From assembly GCF_019968905.1 (NCBI RefSeq), contig NZ_CP079946.1, forward strand, positions 744,001 through 808,000: a stretch of 64,000 bases of DNA. Direction: 5' to 3'. The notes below the pieces were generated by a model. The model was not told the origin of the DNA. It saw nothing but the letters and a program-made list of their open reading frames with translations, and did not search any database. Origin of the DNA: Corallococcus sp. EGB (GTDB lineage: Bacteria > Myxococcota > Myxococcia > Myxococcales > Myxococcaceae). A program made the position numbers and the translations under genes. This document shows, one piece after another, positions 24,630 through 33,419 of the stretch (its first letter is position 1; every line of letters begins with the position of its first letter).

Positions 24630-27374
24630 CTACCGCGCCACCAGCGTCTCCAGGTGCTGGCGGAGCGCGGCCGTGTCCCCCAGCCGTCCGCCCAGGCCCG
24701 GAAGAGGCTTCGCGGCCTGCTCGATGCGGCCCCTCGTGCGAGGCCCCGCCGCCACCAGCCACGCCACGCCCAGCGCCAGCTCCGCCACGTCCGGTGCCTG
24801 TCCCAGCTGCGCGGCCAGCGCGAGCAGCGCGTCCACGGCCTTCTTCACCTGCGCGCCGTGCAGCGGGTGGCTGCTGGTGATGCCCTCGCGCAGGAGCACC
24901 AGCAGCACCCGGGCGGTGGCGCGAGCCTGGCGCACCGGCTCCGGCCCCTCACCCGTGCCGGCCCACAGCCCGTTCGCCAGCTGCCGGCCCAACAGGTCGC
25001 CCACGTCCTCGGTGAAGCTGGGGGCCTCCGCCACGGACAGCGACAGGGACTCCTCCTCCACGGACAGCGTCCGGGACGCTGCCTGCTCGTAGAGCACCTC
25101 CGCCTTCTGGGCGCGCGGAGCCGCCTGCGCAGGAGTCGGCGCCCCTGGAGCGGCGGCCTTGTGAGGCTTCGCGGCGGCCATCAGCCGGTCGAAGATGCCG
25201 CCCTTCTCCTTCTTCCGCTTCGTGGACTCCTGCTCCCTGCGCTCCATGGGCGCGGCGGCTCCCGTGGCCCCGGCGCCATCCGCGAACTCCTCCTGGATGG
25301 AGGCGCCGGTGGTGGGCTCAGGCCCCAGCGCGGGCGCGGAGGCGGGGGCGGCGACGCTCGGAGGCGGCGCAGGCACCGCGCCGCCCCGGGAGCGGCTGAC
25401 CCCTCCAGGCATCGCTCCGGGCGCGGGCATCGGCCTCTGCGAGGAAGTGGCCCGCCTCACCTGGATGAGCGGCCTCGGAGCCGCGCCTCCGAACACGGGC
25501 GCCGGCGCCGGCATGTCGTCGTCCACGTCGTGCGGGGCCGCGTTGAACATGTTCCAGCCCGCGGGCGCGCTCACCGGCACCACGCGTGTCTCCGGCGTGC
25601 CGGATGCGCGACGGTCGCCCTGGCGCTCCTCCACCACCACGAAGGACGTGTACTTCGTGGCCAGCTGGTGCTCGATGGCGAGCCGCACGATGCGCTCCTT
25701 CATCGCGTCCGCGCGCCGGCCCACCAGCCCCGCGTCCATCCATCCCCGGATGCGCTCGGCGGCCCACAACTTCTCCACCACCGGCCGGTCCGACTGCGCG
25801 GGCAGCGCCAGCCGCACCGTGAGGGAGAAGGGCTCCCGGCCCGACCTCCCCTTCAGCGTCACGCTGCCCGTGCCCGCCTGCGCATAGCGCCCGAAGAGCG
25901 TCCACGGAGTGCCGTCCACCAGCGGCGGCAGCGTGGACGGAGCCAGCTCGCTGGCCTCCACGCCGTCGAAGGCCACCTCCAGGTCGGTGACGCGCGGCGC
26001 GAGCGCCCGCGAGAACTGCGCCACCACCTTCTCGTCGATGCGCTCCCCCGGGTGGATGAACTCCACCGCGCCGTCCGTGCGCCGCGCCAGTTCGCGCAAG
26101 AGCACGTCGCTCACGTTGGTGCCGATGCCGAACGAAAACACCCGCCCCGTCCCGCGCGCCGCGAGCACCGCGTCGAGGATCTCGCTCTCGTTGCCCACCT
26201 GGCCGTCCGTCAGCAGCACCACCACGCCGTCCGGCGCGGCCTTCATCGCGGTGACCATCGGCTCCAGGAGCTCCGTGCCGCCATGGGCCCGCAGCGCCGC
26301 GACCCACGCGTCCGCCTGCTCCAGCGTGCGCTGGGTGAACGGCACCGTCTGCGCGGAGAAGGAGCGGAACGCGTTCTCGAACGCGATGACGTTGAAGCGG
26401 TCGCCCTCGCGCAGGTGGCGCAGGCACAGCCGGAGCGCGGCCTGGGCCTGCGGCAGGCTGTCCCCGTCCATGGAGCCGGACGTGTCCACCACGAACACCA
26501 CCTCCTGCCGGGGCGGCGTCGTCGCCAGGTTCAGCAGGTCCGGCACCACCGTGAGCGCGAACGTGCCCGGGCCCTCCGCCTTCCGGTGGGTCACGACGGG
26601 CGTGAGCATCACGTCCGGGTGGGCGTTGCGCATCGTGAGCACCACGTCCCGGTTCAGCGCCACCTCGTCGCCCGCGAGGTTCTTCAGGAACGCGTCGCGC
26701 TGCAGGTTCACCCGCGTGCGCGTGCCGTCCTTCGTGACGGTGAGCCGGTGGGATGGGCTCTCCACCACCACGTCACGGCCCACGTCGATGAGCAGGTCCA
26801 TCCGCATCCCGTAGTCCACCGGGCCCTGCGGCGGGGTGATGCGGTCCGCGTCCGGCACCCGCGTCGTCGGGGCCGCTTCGCCGTGGCCGGTGCGGTCGCC
26901 GTGCACCGCGCCGGGGATGTAGCGGGGCGCCACCAGCGTGGGCAGCATCCAGCGCACGCTGCCCTCCTCCGCGGTGAGCGTCTGGAGGAACTCCACCTCC
27001 ACCCGCGTCTCCTCGCCCGGCAGCAGGTTGCCCACCTGCGCGGTGAAGACGTTGGCGCGCTCCTGGTCCAACAGCGCCGCGCCGTGCCCTTCCGTGATGG
27101 CGTCGTCGTAGGCGCGGAAGGCCTCCTCGCGCTCCTTCACCACGCCGGCCACGCGGCGGCCCGCGCACGTCATGGAGAAGGCACTGAGCGTCGCGTCGGA
27201 GGGCAGGGGGAAGGTGTAGATGGCCTCCACCGGCTTCTTCTCGTCGTTGCGGTAGCGCTGCGTCACGCGTACCCGCGCGTGCCCCCCGAGCAGCTCTCCG
27301 GTGACCTCCACTCCCTGCAGGGGCACCCGGGCCCCCTCACGCGTGAACAGCCCACACTTCGCCTGCTCGTTCAT
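24630..27374 (-). CDS. VIT- and vWA-domain protein (inter-alpha-trypsin inhibitor heavy chain-like)
   Basis: A 914-residue protein. An N-terminal VIT domain (about 5-130; VRVTQRYRNDEKKPVEAIYTFPLP) is followed by a bridging region and a vWA domain (about 288-470) with an intact MIDAS: Asp297, Ser299 and Ser301 in DTSGSM. The C-terminal 400 residues are Pro/Ala-rich low-complexity linkers and helical segments. VIT-vWA proteins form metal-dependent adhesion complexes in animals and, in bacteria, associate with envelope or assembly functions. No signal peptide or membrane span is evident at the N-terminus. The ATG at 27374 overlaps the MerR stop (ATGA), which fixes the start and couples translation. 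The codons upstream of 27374 in this frame are not part of the protein. Confidence 0.85.
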   Translation of the reverse strand: MNEQAKCGLFTREGARVPLQGVEVTGELLGGHARVRVTQRYRNDEKKPVEAIYTFPLPSDATLSAFSMTCAGRRVAGVVKEREEAFRAYDDAITEGHGAALLDQERANVFTAQVGNLLPGEETRVEVEFLQTLTAEEGSVRWMLPTLVAPRYIPGAVHGDRTGHGEAAPTTRVPDADRITPPQGPVDYGMRMDLLIDVGRDVVVESPSHRLTVTKDGTRTRVNLQRDAFLKNLAGDEVALNRDVVLTMRNAHPDVMLTPVVTHRKAEGPGTFALTVVPDLLNLATTPPRQEVVFVVDTSGSMDGDSLPQAQAALRLCLRHLREGDRFNVIAFENAFRSFSAQTVPFTQRTLEQADAWVAALRAHGGTELLEPMVTAMKAAPDGVVVLLTDGQVGNESEILDAVLAARGTGRVFSFGIGTNVSDVLLRELARRTDGAVEFIHPGERIDEKVVAQFSRALAPRVTDLEVAFDGVEASELAPSTLPPLVDGTPWTLFGRYAQAGTGSVTLKGRSGREPFSLTVRLALPAQSDRPVVEKLWAAERIRGWMDAGLVGRRADAMKERIVRLAIEHQLATKYTSFVVVEERQGDRRASGTPETRVVPVSAPAGWNMFNAAPHDVDDDMPAPAPVFGGAAPRPLIQVRRATSSQRPMPAPGAMPGGVSRSRGGAVPAPPPSVAAPASAPALGPEPTTGASIQEEFADGAGATGAAAPMERREQESTKRKKEKGGIFDRLMAAAKPHKAAAPGAPTPAQAAPRAQKAEVLYEQAASRTLSVEEESLSLSVAEAPSFTEDVGDLLGRQLANGLWAGTGEGPEPVRQARATARVLLVLLREGITSSHPLHGAQVKKAVDALLALAAQLGQAPDVAELALGVAWLVAAGPRTRGRIEQAAKPLPGLGGRLGDTAALRQHLETLVAR

Positions 27375-27859
27375 GACGGCGTTCCTTCCTCGGACTCCTC
27401 GATGAGGGCGCGCACCCGCTCCGCCAGCGCCCGGACCTTCGCTTCCGCCTGCTCCGACACGTGCAATTCCAACCCCGGCGCCAGGAGCCAGCGCTGGTAA
27501 CGCGCCACCTCCACCGTCGGGTCTCTCCCCGGCCGCTTCGGGGGCACCCGGGCCACGTCCTCCGGGACCGGAGGCGTCCCCGGGCCCACCGGCGACTCCG
27601 CCAGCCGGCGCAGCTCCTCCGGCGACAGCCGCAGCAGCTCCGCCTGGATGGCGTCCAGGGGCAGGAACCGCGCCTGGAGCACCCGGATGGCCTTGAGCCG
27701 CACCCGGTGCTCCTCTCCGTAGACCGTGTCCGGCCCCTTGAAGGGAGGCGCGGGCAGCAGGCCTCGCTGGACGTAATAGCGGACCGTGCGAGGCGAGACG
27801 CCCACCTCCTCCGCCAGCGCGGCCAGCTTCCACTCCGTCTGTGTCTTGGGCGTGCTCAC
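27371..27859 (-). CDS. MerR-family regulator, coupled to the VIT/vWA gene
   Basis: A 162-residue MerR-like protein. The HTH and first wing are clear: LAALAEEVGVSPRTVRYYVQRGLL (about 13-36), then a helix pair (KAIRVLQARFLPLDAIQAELL). No Cys cluster or B12/metal-binding C-domain is visible; the C-terminus is a Pro/Arg linker and a charged helix. I choose GTG at 27859 because the longer frame would begin at a TTG that is itself the -35 box of the apparent promoter. The stop overlaps the VIT/vWA start by four bases, so the regulator probably controls both genes. Confidence 0.85.
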   Translation of the reverse strand: MSTPKTQTEWKLAALAEEVGVSPRTVRYYVQRGLLPAPPFKGPDTVYGEEHRVRLKAIRVLQARFLPLDAIQAELLRLSPEELRRLAESPVGPGTPPVPEDVARVPPKRPGRDPTVEVARYQRWLLAPGLELHVSEQAEAKVRALAERVRALIEESEEGTPS

Positions 27860-27866
27860 GAACCTG

Positions 27867-27895
27867 ACAGTAGGTTGTGACAGTTTAAGTGTCAA
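27867..27895 (-). promoter_or_regulatory. Promoter and operator for the MerR-VIT/vWA unit
   Basis: Reading the minus strand, TTGACA (27895-27890) is spaced 17 bases from TACTGT (27872-27867). The -35 is perfect; the -10 is weak (three of six). The predicted start of transcription is at or within one base of the chosen GTG (27859), so the mRNA may be leaderless. Half-sites TGACA (27894-27890), TGTCA (27882-27878) and TGTCA (27869-27865) overlap the -35, the spacer and the -10; the first two form an inverted repeat with seven bases between. This arrangement suits MerR autoregulation. Confidence 0.6.
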
Positions 27896-27975
27896 GATGT
27901 CGGTGGCGATTCGTCAGCGATGGTGTCTGGATGCGGGGAGGTGGCGGCCAGGCGGGCGGTGGGACAGAAGGGGGC

Positions 27976-28467
27976 ATGAACGTCGGCGTGGACGGCCTGG
28001 ACCCCTCCTCCATCCAGCTCATCGGCACGGCGGTGACGCCCGCGGTGATGGTGTCCGGGTGCGGCATCCTGGCCACGGGCCTGGACAATCAAATCTCGCG
28101 CATCACCGCGCGCATGCGGGACATGGTCCGGGAATGGCGCACGCTGCCGGAGGGCCACGCGCGCCGCCTCCTCCTTCGCGAGGAGGTGGCCATCATGGAC
28201 CGCCGCCACGCCATCCTCGCGAGGGCCATCGGCTTCACCTACGCGGCGCTGCTGTCCTTCGTGGTGACGTCGCTGCTCTACCTGCTTCGCCGCAGCGTCG
28301 CGGTGCTGGAGGGGCTGCCGGTGATGTCCTTCTCCCTGGGCGTGGGACTGTTGGGCTCCACGGCGGTGCTGGCCCTGGCGTCGCTGCGGTTGAGTCGCCG
28401 CGCCATCACGCTGGAGGGCGCGGAGCTCTTCCGCGATGAGCGGGCGGGCGGCCCTCCTTCGCCCTGA
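27976..28467 (+). CDS. DUF2721-family membrane protein
   Basis: A 163-residue protein matching DUF2721: an N-terminal hydrophobic segment with PAVMVSGCGILATGLDNQISRITARMR (about 19-45), a charged helical loop, and two membrane segments (about 85-105 and 118-138). The ATG at 27976 follows AGAAGGGGG; the open codons upstream are Gly-rich and not coded. Function of the family is unknown. It diverges from the MerR regulator with the operator between them, so it could share its control. Confidence 0.75.
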   Translation: MNVGVDGLDPSSIQLIGTAVTPAVMVSGCGILATGLDNQISRITARMRDMVREWRTLPEGHARRLLLREEVAIMDRRHAILARAIGFTYAALLSFVVTSLLYLLRRSVAVLEGLPVMSFSLGVGLLGSTAVLALASLRLSRRAITLEGAELFRDERAGGPPSP

Positions 28468-29188: not shown

Positions 29189-30013
29189 TCAGGACAGCCC
29201 GTGGGACGCGCCCTCGTCCTCCTCCTCTTCATGCACCTCCTCCGGCCGGAAGGGCCGCGCGGGCACGGCGCCGAACGCGCGCAAGAGCTCCAGGGGGATG
29301 GGCAGGATGGTGTGGTTGCCGCCGCTGGTGATCTCCACCAGCGTTTGCAGGTAGCGCAGCTGGAGCGTGGCGGGGTTGCGGCTGAGCACGTCCGCGGCCT
29401 GGGCGAGCTTCTCCGCGGCCTGGTGTTCGCCCTCCGCGGCGATGATCTTCGCGCGGCGCTCGCGTTCCGCCTCGGCCTGACGGGCGATGGCCCGCTGCAT
29501 CTCGATGGGCAGGTCGATGTGCTTCACCTCCACGTTGGACACCTTCACGCCCCACGGGTCGGTGCGAGCATCCAGCACCTGCTGCAATTCGTGGTTGATG
29601 CGCTCGCGCTGGGACAACAGGCCGTCCAGCTCCACCTGGCCCAGGATGGCGCGCAGGGTCGTCTGCGCGATCTGGCTGGTGGCGTAGAGGTAGTCCTCCA
29701 CCTGGAGCACCGCCTTGTCCGCCTGGATGACGCGGAAGTAGACGACGGCGCTGACCTTCACGCTGACGTTGTCCCTGGTGATGACGTCCTGCGGGGGCAC
29801 GTCGCGCGCCACGGTGCGCAGGTCGATGATGACCATCCGTTCGATGAACGGGATGAGCCAGCGGAAGCCCGCGCGCTTGAGGCCCACGTAGCGGCCCAGC
29901 CGGAACACGACGCCGTTCTGGTACTCGGCGACGATGCGCACACCGGAGAGGAAGAGGAGGAACAGCACGGCCAAAGGGATGATCCATCCCAGCGCACCGA
30001 CCAGTTCATTCAT
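29189..30013 (-). CDS. Slipin/stomatin-like SPFH membrane protein
   Basis: A 274-residue SPFH (band 7) protein. One N-terminal hairpin/membrane segment (about 8-27) is followed by [35 protein letters not shown], the diagnostic slipin start, the band 7 domain (about 25-190) and a C-terminal helix rich in Glu/Ala/Arg typical of oligomer contacts. Slipins assemble ring-like membrane scaffolds. The gene overlaps its upstream NfeD partner by ATGA, the standard bacterial pairing, in which NfeD proteases are thought to process the slipin. Confidence 0.92.
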
Positions 30014-31365
30014 GGCATGGACTCCGCGACGGTGAGGGTGAGTCCCTCCACGGCGCGCACCACGACCCGGGCGCCCTCGCGGATGGGAGTGAAGGAGACA
30101 GCGCGCCAGCGCTCGCCATGGACGAACACCTCGCCGCCCGAAGGCGTGACGGGGGCCAGCGCCGTGCCCGACTCGCCGACGAGCCCCGCGTCACCGCCCC
30201 GCTGCGGCAGCCTGCGCGTCTGGGCGCTGCGGTACGCGATGAAGGCCGCGCTCCCCGCGAGCACGAGCGCCGTGGGCAGCATCACGCCCCACGACAGGCG
30301 GAAGGACGGCTCCACGAACCAGTCCGGTTCGAAGCGGTCCATCAGGAACACGCCCCCCAATATCAACAGCCCCACGCCCGCCACGCCCAGCAGGCCGCTG
30401 GTGACGAACAGCTCCGCGACGATGAGCCCCACGCCCGCGAGCATCAACACCAGCGCGCCCGAGCGCACCGGCAGCGTCGCGGAGGCCATCAACGCCAGCA
30501 CCAGCGCCACGCCGCCAATGAGGCCCGGCGCCACCGCGCCCGGATGGGACAGCTCCGCCACCAGGCCCAGCGCCGCGACGAGGAACAGCAGGTAGACGAG
30601 CGAAGGCTGCGCGAGCGCATGCACCACCCGCTGTGACAGCCCCGGCTCCAGCGACACCACGCGGGCCTCGCGGGTGGCGAGCGTCACGTTGTCGCCGCCC
30701 GCCACCTGCACACGGCGGCCATCGACGGCGGTGAGGAACGCGGCCTCGGTGGGCGCGATGAGCTCCACCACGTGAAGCTGCACGGCACGGTCCGCGGGAA
30801 CGCTGGCGCTGTCGCGCACGGCGGCCGCGGCCCACTCCGGATTGCGGCCCCGCTGCTGGGCGATGCCCTCCGCGAAGGCGACCGTGTCGTTCTCCAGCTT
30901 CCGGGCAAGCTCTTCACCGCCCACCTGCTCCACATCCTCGCCCTTCATGCCCACGGGGTGCGCCGCGCCGATGTTCGTCCCCGGGGCCATGGCGCTCACG
31001 TTCGACGCGAGCGCGATGAACACCCCCGCGCTGCCCGCCCGGGCGCCGGAAGGCCCCACCCACACGAGCACGGGAACGCGCGAGCCCAGGAACGCGCGCA
31101 CCACGGCGCGGGTGGCCTCCAGGGAGCCCCCCGGTGTGTCCAGCCGCACGAGCAGCGCCGAGGCCCCGCCGTCCTCCGCGCGCTTCACGCAGTCCGTGAG
31201 GTACGCGCCGGATCCGGTATCCACCACGCCCTCCAGCTCGCACCGCGCGACGAAGGACGGTGAAGCGGGCGCCGCCGGAGCGGCAAGGCCCATGAAGAGA
31301 AGCGCCACGAGCCAGCCCCAGAGGGCGTGATGGCGCCAGCTCCTCCTGTCGACGTGCTCCCGCAT
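30010..31365 (-). CDS. NfeD-family ClpP-like membrane serine protease
   Basis: A 451-residue protein: signal sequence or N-anchor (about 15-35), a ClpP-type periplasmic protease domain (about 40-230) with RLDTPGG and nucleophile Ser in [13 protein letters not shown] (near 105-117), then four or more membrane helices (about 260-375) and a C-terminal NfeD beta-barrel (OB-like, about 390-451). The ATG at 31365 is the first Met before the signal; codons upstream are open but unlike coding sequence. The stop overlaps the slipin start (ATGA). NfeD/slipin pairs are implicated in membrane protein quality control, and the protease is thought to cut the C-terminus of the slipin. Confidence 0.92.
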
Positions 31366-31590
31366 GGCCGCCCCCGGTGCGCGCTCCCCACGCACACGCA
31401 CTCGGTGAACGATGTGCATCGGACGTTCGGATGACCGGGATGAGAAGCCGGGGGCCCGGAGGGCATGCGGGCAGGAGGGGACCGCTACCCCGCTTGTGCA
31501 TCCAATCCTGGACGTTGGAGGGGATGCGCGTTGCTGGAGGAGGACGCACCTCCTTAGCTTCAACATCGCGATTTTCTTCCAGGAGGTTTC

Positions 31591-31809
31591 ATGCGCCGTG
31601 CCGTGCTCTTCATCGCTGCTCTGGGGCTGACCGCTGCAGCGGTGGCCTGCAAGACCACCCAGCCCCCAGGGACGGAGGACCAGCTGCCCATCCAGGGCCC
31701 GGACACGAACCGCGAAGTCATCCAGAACGTGCCCAATGAACCGGCGGGTCCCGCGGGTCCCATCAATGCGCCGGACGTGGATGGTGGCATCCCCGAGGGT
31801 GGCGGGTAG
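31591..31809 (+). CDS. Small lipoprotein, Pro/Gly-rich
   Basis: A 72-residue lipoprotein: signal MRRAVLFIAALGLTAAAVAC with the lipidated Cys at residue 20 and a strong ribosome site (AGGAGG) just upstream. The mature 52 residues are Pro/Gly/Asn-rich and probably disordered, with no motif. It may be an outer-membrane or peptidoglycan spacer. The next gene starts 11 bases later on the same strand. Confidence 0.75.
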   Translation: MRRAVLFIAALGLTAAAVACKTTQPPGTEDQLPIQGPDTNREVIQNVPNEPAGPAGPINAPDVDGGIPEGGG

Positions 31810-31820
31810 TCTTCCGCGCC

Positions 31821-33419
31821 ATGACGGCGGAGACCACGGTCTACAAGGCGGAGCGCGTGTGGACGCTCGATGCGGAGCGTCCGCGCGCGGAAGCCTTGGC
31901 GGTGCGGGACGGGCGGTTGCTCGCGGTGGGCACGCTCGCGGAGGTCCGCTCCGCGGCAGGGCCCACCGCACGTGAAGTGGACCTGGGCCGGGCCACGGTG
32001 GTGCCCGGCCTGGTGGACGCGCACGCGCACATCCACGGCCTGGGCAAGAGCCTGACCACGGTGCGCCTGGAGAAGGCGTCCTCGGTGGAGGACGTCCTCC
32101 AGCGCCTGGCGAGGGCGCCCGCGTCGAGCTTCCAGGGCGACTGGCTGCTCGGCAAGGGTTGGGACCAGAACGAGTGGCCCGGCGCCGCGTTCCCCGGCCG
32201 CAAGGAGCTGGATGCGCGCTTCCCCTCGACGCCGGTGTTCCTCACGCGCGTGGATCATCACGCGGCCTGGGTGAACGGCGAGGCGCTGCGCCGCGCGGGC
32301 ATCACGCGCGACACGCCGGATCCGCCCGGAGGCCGCATCCTCAAGGACGTCAGCGGCGAGCCCACCGGCGTCCTCGTGGACAACGCGATGGACATGGTGG
32401 AGGCCGCCATTCCCACGCCCACGCGCGAACAGCTGGAGACCCGGCTGCGGGCCGCGCTGGAGCGGTGCGCGCAGGTCGGGCTCACGGGCGTGCACGACGC
32501 GGGCATGGACCTGCAGGCCTTCCGCACGTTGCAGGCCTGGGACGCGGCGGGGACGCTGCCCCTGCGGGTTTACGCGATGGCGGCGGGGCAGGGTGAACAG
32601 CGCCACGCCTATCTGGAGCAGGGGCCCTGGCAGGGGCGCCACCTGTCGATGCGCTCGGTGAAGTTCCTGGCGGATGGAGCGCTGGGGAGCCGGGGCGCGG
32701 CGCTGCACGACGACTACAGCGACGAGCCCGGCCAGCGCGGCCTGTTGCTCCTCACGCCCGAGGAGCTCGAGGCGCGCGCACAGGCCTTCATGGCCCGGGG
32801 CTTCCAGGTGTGCATCCACGCCATTGGAGACCGTGCCAATACATTGGTCGTGGACGTGCTGCTGCGAGGCGCGGAGCGGACGGGCACACAGGCCCTGCGC
32901 CACCGCGTGGAGCACGCGCAGATCCTGCGGCGGGACGACATCCAGAGGCTGGGCGCGGCGGGCCTGGTGGCCAGCGTGCAGCCCACGCACGCCACCAGCG
33001 ACATGCCCTGGGCGGAGACGCGGCTGGGGCGCGAACGGCTCAAGGGCGCCTACGCCTGGCGCACGTTGAAGGACGCGGGCGCGCACCTGGCGCTGGGCAG
33101 TGACTTCCCCATCGAGAACCCGGATGTGCTCGCGGGGCTCTACGCGGCGCGCACGCGGCAGGACGCGAAGGGCTGGCCGGAGGGCGGCTGGTATCCGGAG
33201 GAGCGCCTGAGCGCTGCGGAGGCCCTGGAGGGCTTCACGGTGGGGCCCGCGTGGGCCTCCTTCGAGGAGGCGCGGCGCGGGCGGCTGAAGCCCGGCCTGG
33301 ACGCGGACTTCGTCGCGTTGTCGGCGGATCCGCTGGAGGGGCCCGCGTCAGCCCTGGTGGACGCGCGCGTGCTGGCCACGGTGGTGGCGGGCGCGGAGGT
33401 GTTCCGGGCGGCGGACTGA
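31821..33419 (+). CDS. Amidohydrolase (YtcJ-like, metal-dependent)
   Basis: A 532-residue member of the amidohydrolase superfamily with an N-terminal small beta domain (about 1-60) and the TIM barrel (about 60-480). The metal-binding HxH is in DAHAHIHG (about 67-74); CIHAIGDRAN and HRVEHAQIL supply further metal-site His; LALGSDFPIE holds the active-site Asp. YtcJ-type proteins hydrolyse small amides or esters; the natural substrate is not known. The gene stops at 33419, directly against the LysR stop on the other strand (TGATCA). It is probably co-transcribed with the small lipoprotein. Confidence 0.88.
   Translation: MTAETTVYKAERVWTLDAERPRAEALAVRDGRLLAVGTLAEVRSAAGPTAREVDLGRATVVPGLVDAHAHIHGLGKSLTTVRLEKASSVEDVLQRLARAPASSFQGDWLLGKGWDQNEWPGAAFPGRKELDARFPSTPVFLTRVDHHAAWVNGEALRRAGITRDTPDPPGGRILKDVSGEPTGVLVDNAMDMVEAAIPTPTREQLETRLRAALERCAQVGLTGVHDAGMDLQAFRTLQAWDAAGTLPLRVYAMAAGQGEQRHAYLEQGPWQGRHLSMRSVKFLADGALGSRGAALHDDYSDEPGQRGLLLLTPEELEARAQAFMARGFQVCIHAIGDRANTLVVDVLLRGAERTGTQALRHRVEHAQILRRDDIQRLGAAGLVASVQPTHATSDMPWAETRLGRERLKGAYAWRTLKDAGAHLALGSDFPIENPDVLAGLYAARTRQDAKGWPEGGWYPEERLSAAEALEGFTVGPAWASFEEARRGRLKPGLDADFVALSADPLEGPASALVDARVLATVVAGAEVFRAAD

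What the first reader, a model, noticed from the sequence alone, without database searches (positions are those of the whole stretch)
27371..27895. MerR regulator coupled to VIT/vWA protein, with leaderless-type promoter and triple half-site operator
Seen: a perfect -35 and a 17-bp-spaced -10, whose predicted start falls within one base of a GTG that begins the MerR frame; a TGACA/TGTCA inverted repeat covering -35 and spacer; a third half-site in the -10; and an ATGA overlap with a 914-residue VIT/vWA protein. Known: MerR-type regulators commonly act at their own promoters; VIT/vWA proteins are usually not linked to them. Inference: an autoregulated cassette controlling a VIT/vWA assembly factor, with a leaderless transcript.
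Basis: partly seen in the sequence, partly recalled or inferred. Interest (0 to 1): 0.6.

Follow-up and report, generated by a model that had tools for sequence, protein, structure and literature searches.

The report
Leaderless MerR switch controlling VIT/vWA protein
A small DNA-binding switch gene and the large binding-protein gene behind it appear to share one self-controlled promoter that starts the message exactly at the first codon, an arrangement kept in dozens of related soil bacteria and seen, in part, in two other bacterial phyla; what the pair responds to is unknown.

Summary
On the minus strand, TTGACA-N17-TACTGT lies 7 nt before the GTG of a 162-aa MerR protein whose stop overlaps (ATGA) a 914-aa VIT/vWA gene. 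In 62 of 62 strong-hit genomes of the same family the two genes are adjacent; the promoter was read in 61 and is present in 60, always with a 17-bp spacer and 7 nt (58) or 6 nt (2) to an ATG/GTG. None of 60 MerR starts has a Shine-Dalgarno-like sequence, against 58 of 59 VIT starts. Eleven of 13 distant Myxococcota loci keep TTGACA, a -10 and 6-7 nt to ATG, although -10 and half-sites differ. Pairs with TGTCA sites also occur in Nonomuraea, Aquabacterium and Massilia; Massilia has the same operator but a 5' leader. In its own genome the operator pattern is unique. Best reading: an autorepressed, leaderless MerR-VIT/vWA operon. Binding, repression and signal are inferred, not shown. New variant of a known kind.

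The parts
27371..27859 (-). MerR-type regulator, 162 aa, GTG start; wHTH (residues ~10-80), poorly modelled linker (93-118), C-terminal beta-hairpin plus helix (121-158); no cysteine
   Evidence: PF13411 51.1 bits, cutoff 21.6; AlphaFold2; Cys in 0 of 23 rows of A2, in 1 of 15 of A1
24630..27374 (-). VIT/vWA protein, 914 aa: VIT 19-129, vWA 290-439 with a DxSxS motif (VDTSGS) read in the sequence, proline-rich linker, helical C-terminal domain 791-913
   Evidence: PF08487 113.2 bits; PF13768 77.6; only the C-terminal helices modelled with confidence
27371..27374 (-). ATGA overlap of the MerR stop (TGA) and the VIT/vWA start (ATG)
27383..27390 (-). AGGAAGGA, Shine-Dalgarno-like sequence of the VIT/vWA gene, inside the end of merR
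   Evidence: SD-like 4-mer at 58 of 59 VIT starts
27890..27895 (-). -35 element TTGACA; 27894-27890 is also half-site TGACA
27878..27882 (-). half-site TGTCA in the spacer, 7 bp from the first
   Evidence: TGTC in 35 of 37 distinct strings, TGGC in 2
27867..27872 (-). -10 element TACTGT
27865..27869 (-). third half-site TGTCA, overlapping the end of the -10
27857..27859 (-). GTG start codon and predicted transcription start (leaderless); preceded by a pyrimidine
   Evidence: -1 is C/T in 60 of 60, +1 is G/A in 60 of 60
27899..27917 (-). upstream half-site-like repeats CTGAC (27917-27913) and CACCGAC (27905-27899), seen in relatives as CTGaC and CACTGaC 14 bp apart
27976..28467 (+). divergent DUF2721 gene; a DUF2721 relative was found divergently upstream in 50 of 61 family genomes (some of the 11 misses are contig or stretch ends)
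   Evidence: (PF11026 77.2 bits)

Best explanation
A two-gene autorepressed operon. Sigma-70 RNA polymerase starts at the first base of the MerR start codon, giving a leaderless message; MerR is translated without a Shine-Dalgarno and the VIT/vWA protein from its own Shine-Dalgarno at the ATGA overlap. MerR dimers bind TGTCA-type half-sites that are built into the -35, the spacer and the -10 and continue upstream, and shut the promoter by occlusion; the 17-bp spacer is already optimal, so a repressor is expected rather than a classical spacer-twisting MerR activator. The operator pattern is unique in the genome, so the pair is a closed local switch. Release signal unknown; with no cysteine and no recognised ligand domain, a protein partner is a plausible effector. 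SHOWN by sequence: promoter, half-sites, spacing, lack of Shine-Dalgarno, pairing, uniqueness of the pattern. INFERRED: the transcript 5' end, MerR binding, repression, and any effector.
For: Pair adjacent in 62 of 62 strong-hit genomes of the family (for 59 of 61; for the two that tblastn missed; coordinates for G074). Promoter read in 61: 60 have TTGACA-N17-TAnnnT-N7 (58) or N6 (2)-RTG, while the distance between the MerR and the divergent DUF2721 hits varies from 107 to 258 nt. Shine-Dalgarno-like 4-mer at 0 of 60 MerR starts, 58 of 59 VIT starts; -1 pyrimidine and +1 purine in 60 of 60. Distant Myxococcota: 11 of 13 loci keep TTGACA-N16/17-(-10)-N6/7-ATG with different -10 hexamers (TATAAT, TATGAT, TACATT, TATTAT, CACAAT and others), so the hexamer is a promoter element and not only a binding site. 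Half-sites: CTGTC 24 against a shuffle mean of 2.7 in distant loci, 32 against 9.6 upstream of -35 in near ones. Massilia has the same TTGACA-N5-ACTGT-N7-TACTGTCA. Unique pattern in own genome. wHTH fold.
Against: No transcript end, binding or expression data. G044 (L067) has the gene pair but no such promoter. L115 has 9 nt between the -10-like hexamer and ATG (sequence; that script listed no promoter for it). Massilia has the operator with 59 nt between -10 and the annotated ATG and a Shine-Dalgarno-like GGAG, so leaderlessness is not obligatory. The window's -10 is poor (3 of 6). TGCC, counted beside the half-sites, also exceeds its shuffles upstream (42 against 26, maximum 36), so part of the enrichment is not specific to TGTC. 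Repression rather than activation is argued from spacer and overlap alone. CvkR, the nearest described leaderless MerR repressor, is reported not to bind its own core promoter (PMC9938897, passages).
Confidence: 0.78

Rival explanations
1. MerR is a conventional signal-dependent activator at this promoter (for example after ligand binding), with autorepression only in the unliganded state.
For: The MerR wHTH is closest by fold to PbrR, CadR and CueR; half-sites lie between and over -35 and -10.
Against: Spacer is 17 bp in all 60 promoters found, not the 19-20 bp of MerR-type activated promoters (recalled); no cysteine in 23 of 23 rows of A2, though 1 of 15 rows of A1 has one; scores far below the NCBIfam metal-sensor cut-offs.
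Confidence: 0.13
2. The half-sites bind another regulator, and MerR acts elsewhere; promoter conservation reflects that other factor.
For: TGTC-like repeats spread over the intergenic region towards the divergent DUF2721 gene in several genera (and the 25 loci printed before it crashed); no binding data.
Against: TGTCA sites accompany MerR-VIT pairs across phyla with different neighbours; the core pattern occurs once in the genome, odd for a global factor.
Confidence: 0.08
3. The transcript is not leaderless: it starts further upstream and the fixed -10 to start distance is a by-product of operator spacing.
For: Massilia keeps the operator with a leader.
Against: No Shine-Dalgarno-like 4-mer in 60 of 60; in distant Myxococcota the half-sites move but 6-7 nt between -10 and ATG is kept in 11 of 13.
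Confidence: 0.1

Closest known systems
NreA/nreAXY operon of Mesorhizobium (CsoR/RcnR family; PMC12724321, part of the abstract and passages)
   Same: Repressor gene first in an operon, operator within the promoter, 5'-RACE-supported leaderless transcript without Shine-Dalgarno, said to be uniform among the Mesorhizobium strains with nre.
   Different: Different regulator family; responds to nickel; partner genes are putative efflux genes; the passages seen speak of Mesorhizobium only.
CvkR, MerR-type repressor of type V-K CAST systems (PMC9938897, abstract and passages)
   Same: 150-aa MerR-type repressor translated from a leaderless mRNA, lacks a recognisable effector site; fold match over model residues 7-88 (7xn2, Z 9.3, rmsd 1.7, 78 aligned).
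   Different: Site AnnACATnATGTnnT; the authors' data point away from autoregulation; controls cas12k and tnsB; cyanobacterial.
HspR/HAIR autorepressors (MerR family; PMC6102357, part of the abstract and passages)
   Same: Inverted repeat with N7 spacing over its own promoter (HAIR: CTTGAGT-N7-ACTCAAG), extended operator proposed to be bound by several dimers.
   Different: Half-site here is TTGACA/TGTCR; the partner is not a chaperone operon.
Intracellular VIT/vWA proteins: PARP4, ITIH heavy chains (secreted), Dictyostelium Vwa1 (PMC10539598, passages)
   Same: VIT plus vWA core; best solved relatives by sequence are PARP4 (6.5e-38) and ITIH4 (7.4e-22).
   Different: No ADP-ribosyltransferase domain among the Pfam hits; MerR-linked operon.
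Marine proteobacterial sortase target proteins (TIGR03788)
   Same: Residues 27-613 match (407 bits).
   Different: Below the equivalog cut-off 551.65; the three annotated examples inspected sit beside a class GN sortase, not MerR.

Membership tests
MerR family regulator | N-terminal MerR-type winged HTH | tested here: met
   PF13411 51.1 bits and PF00376 39 bits, both over cut-off; wHTH fold Z up to 11.7
Classical MerR activator | operator in an elongated 19-20 bp spacer (recalled) | tested here: not met
   17 bp in 60 of 60 promoters found among 61 read
Metal-sensing MerR (CadR/PbrR, MerR, ZntR) | NCBIfam equivalog score | tested here: not met
   26.9, 27.1 and 19.8 bits against cut-offs 151.45, 150.85 and 167.95
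Leaderless autoregulated repressor operon | promoter places +1 on the start codon, no Shine-Dalgarno | tested here: met
   by sequence only:
Leaderless autoregulated repressor operon | mapped 5' end at the start codon | not testable with these tools
   no RNA data held
Leaderless autoregulated repressor operon | regulator binds and represses its own promoter | not testable with these tools
   half-site conservation only
CvkR subfamily | CvkR-type C-terminal dimerization domain and helix | tested here: inconclusive
   alignment to 7xn2 covers model residues 7-88 only
HspR/HAIR | CTTGAGT-N7-ACTCAAG operator | tested here: not met
   N7 geometry kept but half-site is TTGACA/TGTCA (against the consensus quoted)
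TIGR03788 sortase target | score over equivalog cut-off | tested here: not met
   407.3 against 551.65
Vault (MVP) associated VIT protein | co-occurrence with major vault protein | tested here: not met
   MVP_shoulder in 28 of 92 family genomes; in 0 of the 23 genus-g19 genomes searched, all 23 of which are among the 62 that carry the pair

The most novel reading that the evidence does not exclude
The VIT/vWA protein is itself the effector of MerR: a closed two-protein sensor in which a cytoplasmic PARP4/ITIH-like binding protein captures or releases the regulator through its small beta-hairpin/helix tail, so that occupancy of the VIT/vWA protein by its target is read out as transcription of its own leaderless operon. 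The unit would be an old, widely inherited protein-sensing module in at least three phyla.
Probability: 0.22. Interest if true: 0.75.

Novelty: new variant of a known kind. Interest (0 to 1): 0.52.

Why it matters
It turns a one-genome observation into a testable conserved module: one regulator, one operator, one partner, and a promoter whose -10 to start-codon distance is held at 6-7 nt across deep Myxococcota lineages. That makes leaderless initiation look selected rather than incidental, and gives a natural contrast (Massilia, same operator with a leader). It also gives a handle on bacterial VIT/vWA proteins: in the listings of my searches I saw no paper on the function of a bacterial protein with both domains, only eukaryotic ones and vWA proteins of other kinds.

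Tried and rejected
Vault hypothesis: the genome carries a major-vault-protein-like frame (G000:C1:5824884) and PARP4 is the closest solved VIT relative, but MVP does not track the pair. Sortase-target identity: below cut-off. Global regulon: no second operator beyond the control level. AlphaFold model of the VIT/vWA protein: poor except the C-terminal helices (mean pLDDT 45.4), so I made no fold search with it. The MerR C-terminal hairpin/helix had no useful alignment; the second-look fold comparison tested mainly residues 6-82. Searches for printed work on a MerR-VIT/vWA pair and on leaderless mRNA in myxobacteria or with MerR or repressors showed no paper on this unit in their listings (some listings show only the best of more hits; the library lacks most subscription journals). 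Plasmid VIT hits: 9 of 22 records inspected, 3 MerR-linked; two of the other six have a divergent, differently annotated HTH gene. MerR protein searches of plasmids gave mostly partial, HTH-level matches whose neighbours I did not examine. Paralogous VIT loci L108-L112: 0 of 5 MerR-linked within about 1.5 kb. Of 20 stretches fetched for weaker MerR hits, 13 had a VIT/vWA or vWA frame downstream and 7 did not (L120, L121, L128-L132): those are ordinary MerR genes. The script crashed after 25 loci; redid the count differently. Tree of VIT regions: 26 linked and 11 unlinked rows separate by one branch, but support is only 82/65 and long branches are flagged.
Full report
WHERE IT IS. The window is G000:C1:744001-808000 of a 9.43-Mb, single-contig genome; the named records with the most similar VIT/vWA gene (85-86%) are Corallococcus (which may leave out the genome itself). 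On the minus strand a 162-aa MerR protein (27859-27371) is followed by a 914-aa VIT/vWA protein (27374-24630), sharing ATGA. A DUF2721 gene diverges at 27976.

OBSERVATION. TTGACA, 17 nt, TACTGT, 7 nt, GTG are as described. The -10 is weak (3 of 6), which is why the generic scan lists no promoter. The listed interval is a mechanical ORF starting inside the -35. In the window, 4 of 2168 ATG/GTG codons with 80 open codons have TANNNT 6-7 nt upstream, and 1 also has a good -35, a criterion this gene meets. The core pattern occurs once exactly in the genome; 3 sites at 3 mismatches compare with 6 for the reversed control.

CONSERVATION IN THE FAMILY (the tool's family f1, which holds NCBI's Myxococcaceae and Archangiaceae). 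A MerR search found a match in 67 of 96 family genomes, and a profile in 114 of 195 phylum genomes, 62 of them very strong (E below 1e-70). In all 62 a VIT/vWA frame follows directly on the same strand: 59 of 61 by tblastn, two by reading the frame, and G074 by the coordinates; many stretches hold only the first part of that gene. The promoter was read in 61 (G074 was not fetched): 60 fit, spacer always 17, gap 7 in 58 and 6 in 2; the miss is G044. An earlier count over 55 loci, with some genomes twice, gave 51 with N7 and 4 that the N7 pattern missed; the printout shows N6 in those four. The distance between the MerR and DUF2721 hits, by contrast, runs from 107 to 258 nt in the 50 of 61 where DUF2721 was found. 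No Shine-Dalgarno-like 4-mer precedes MerR in 60 of 60, while 58 of 59 VIT starts have one; the base before the start is a pyrimidine and the first base a purine in 60 of 60. The 7-nt stretch varies in sequence but hardly in length.

HALF-SITES. The spacer site is TGTC in 35 of 37 distinct strings and TGGC in 2; the -10 site is TACTGT in 35 and TAGTGT in 2; the wider set adds TACAGT and TATTGT. Upstream of -35, CTG(A)C repeats recur 14 bp apart; in 70 nt of 39 distinct loci TGTC counts 92 against a shuffle mean of 38 (maximum 51), CACTG 55 against 10 (maximum 19), but TGCC also 42 against 26 (maximum 36). Related sequences are not independent, so these are descriptions, not probabilities.

DISTANT LOCI. 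In Myxococcota outside the strong family set, 13 loci with a readable start were examined: 12 (in L122 the downstream frame matches the vWA part only) plus L067 of G044, which also counts among the 62; L068 and L126 are cut at the contig end and were left out. Eleven have TTGACA, spacer 16-17, a -10 and 6-7 nt to an in-frame ATG; L115 has 9 nt and L067 none. Here the -10 hexamers differ and in several the CTGTC half-site abuts the ATG instead of the -10, so the kept distance is that of a promoter to a start codon. CTGTC counts 24 against 2.7 (maximum 8); TGTC with every TTGACA masked still counts 18. I chose the start among in-frame candidates, all of which are printed.

OTHER PHYLA. Of 22 plasmid-collection records with a VIT/vWA match, 9 were inspected and 3 have a MerR-type gene directly upstream: Nonomuraea gerenzanensis (ATGA overlap; TTGACA-N18-CATCGT-N6-ATG, a poor -10), Aquabacterium olei (TTGCAA-N18-TATATT-N6-GTG, start as annotated) and Massilia sp. 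H6, with TTGACA-N5-ACTGT-N7-TACTGTCA, the window's own spacing, but 59 nt from the -10 to the annotated ATG and a GGAG before it. The other 6 have no MerR match in the stretch fetched.

EVOLUTION. In a tree of 37 VIT/vWA regions the MerR-linked and unlinked rows are separated by one branch, weakly supported (82/65), with long branches flagged: one old association is compatible, not proven.

PROTEINS. MerR: AlphaFold2 (23 rows, mean pLDDT 73.7) gives the wHTH, a poorly modelled linker and a hairpin plus helix. Cysteine in 0 of 23 rows of A2 and 1 of 15 of A1. Fold matches cover essentially the wHTH. VIT/vWA: PARP4 and ITIH are the nearest solved relatives; the model is poor.

MECHANISM. Consensus -35, optimal spacer and half-sites over -35, spacer and -10 argue for a repressor that occludes its own promoter. 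HspR gives a precedent for an N7 inverted repeat and several dimers on an own promoter, NreA for a leaderless repressor-first operon, CvkR for a leaderless MerR repressor without a recognisable effector site, whose authors consider a protein effector possible. I therefore hold autorepression likely, and the VIT/vWA protein as effector a minority, testable idea.

NOVELTY. Leaderless repressor-led operons and MerR autorepressors are known; the MerR-VIT/vWA pairing with this operator and its fixed start distance was in no paper listed by my searches. New variant of a known kind.

CORRECTION MADE ON CHECKING. 

Noticed in passing
G000:C1:5824884-5825234 (own genome, outside the window): A major-vault-protein shoulder domain (PF11978, 156.6 bits, 842-aa frame); present in 15 of 16 genomes of this genus searched and in 28 of 92 of the family.
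   Followed up: partly
L066 1-6120 (G002): Tandem duplication of the VIT/vWA gene, with a remnant of the MerR C-terminus in front of the second copy.
   Followed up: partly
L068 596-3574 (G048): MerR-linked VIT/vWA protein whose C-terminus reads like pieces of a Ser/Thr kinase; by eye only.
   Followed up: no
L122 (G186): Related MerR with the same C-terminal motif; the frame downstream matches the vWA part of the VIT/vWA query only, and a TTGACA-N17-CACAAT-N6-ATG start is present.
   Followed up: no
L043 (BNCN01000008.1): Record labelled Comamonas sp. KCTC 72670 carries the Myxococcus-type locus: possibly a mislabelled or contaminated assembly.
   Followed up: no
window 29189-31971: An NfeD/protease-like frame (30010-31971, minus strand) lies directly upstream of an SPFH/stomatin-like gene (29189-30013, minus strand); recognised by eye from the translation.
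   Followed up: no
L016/L037 1-96: Contig end holds an inverted partial copy of the MerR start with a stop, probably an assembly artefact.
   Followed up: no
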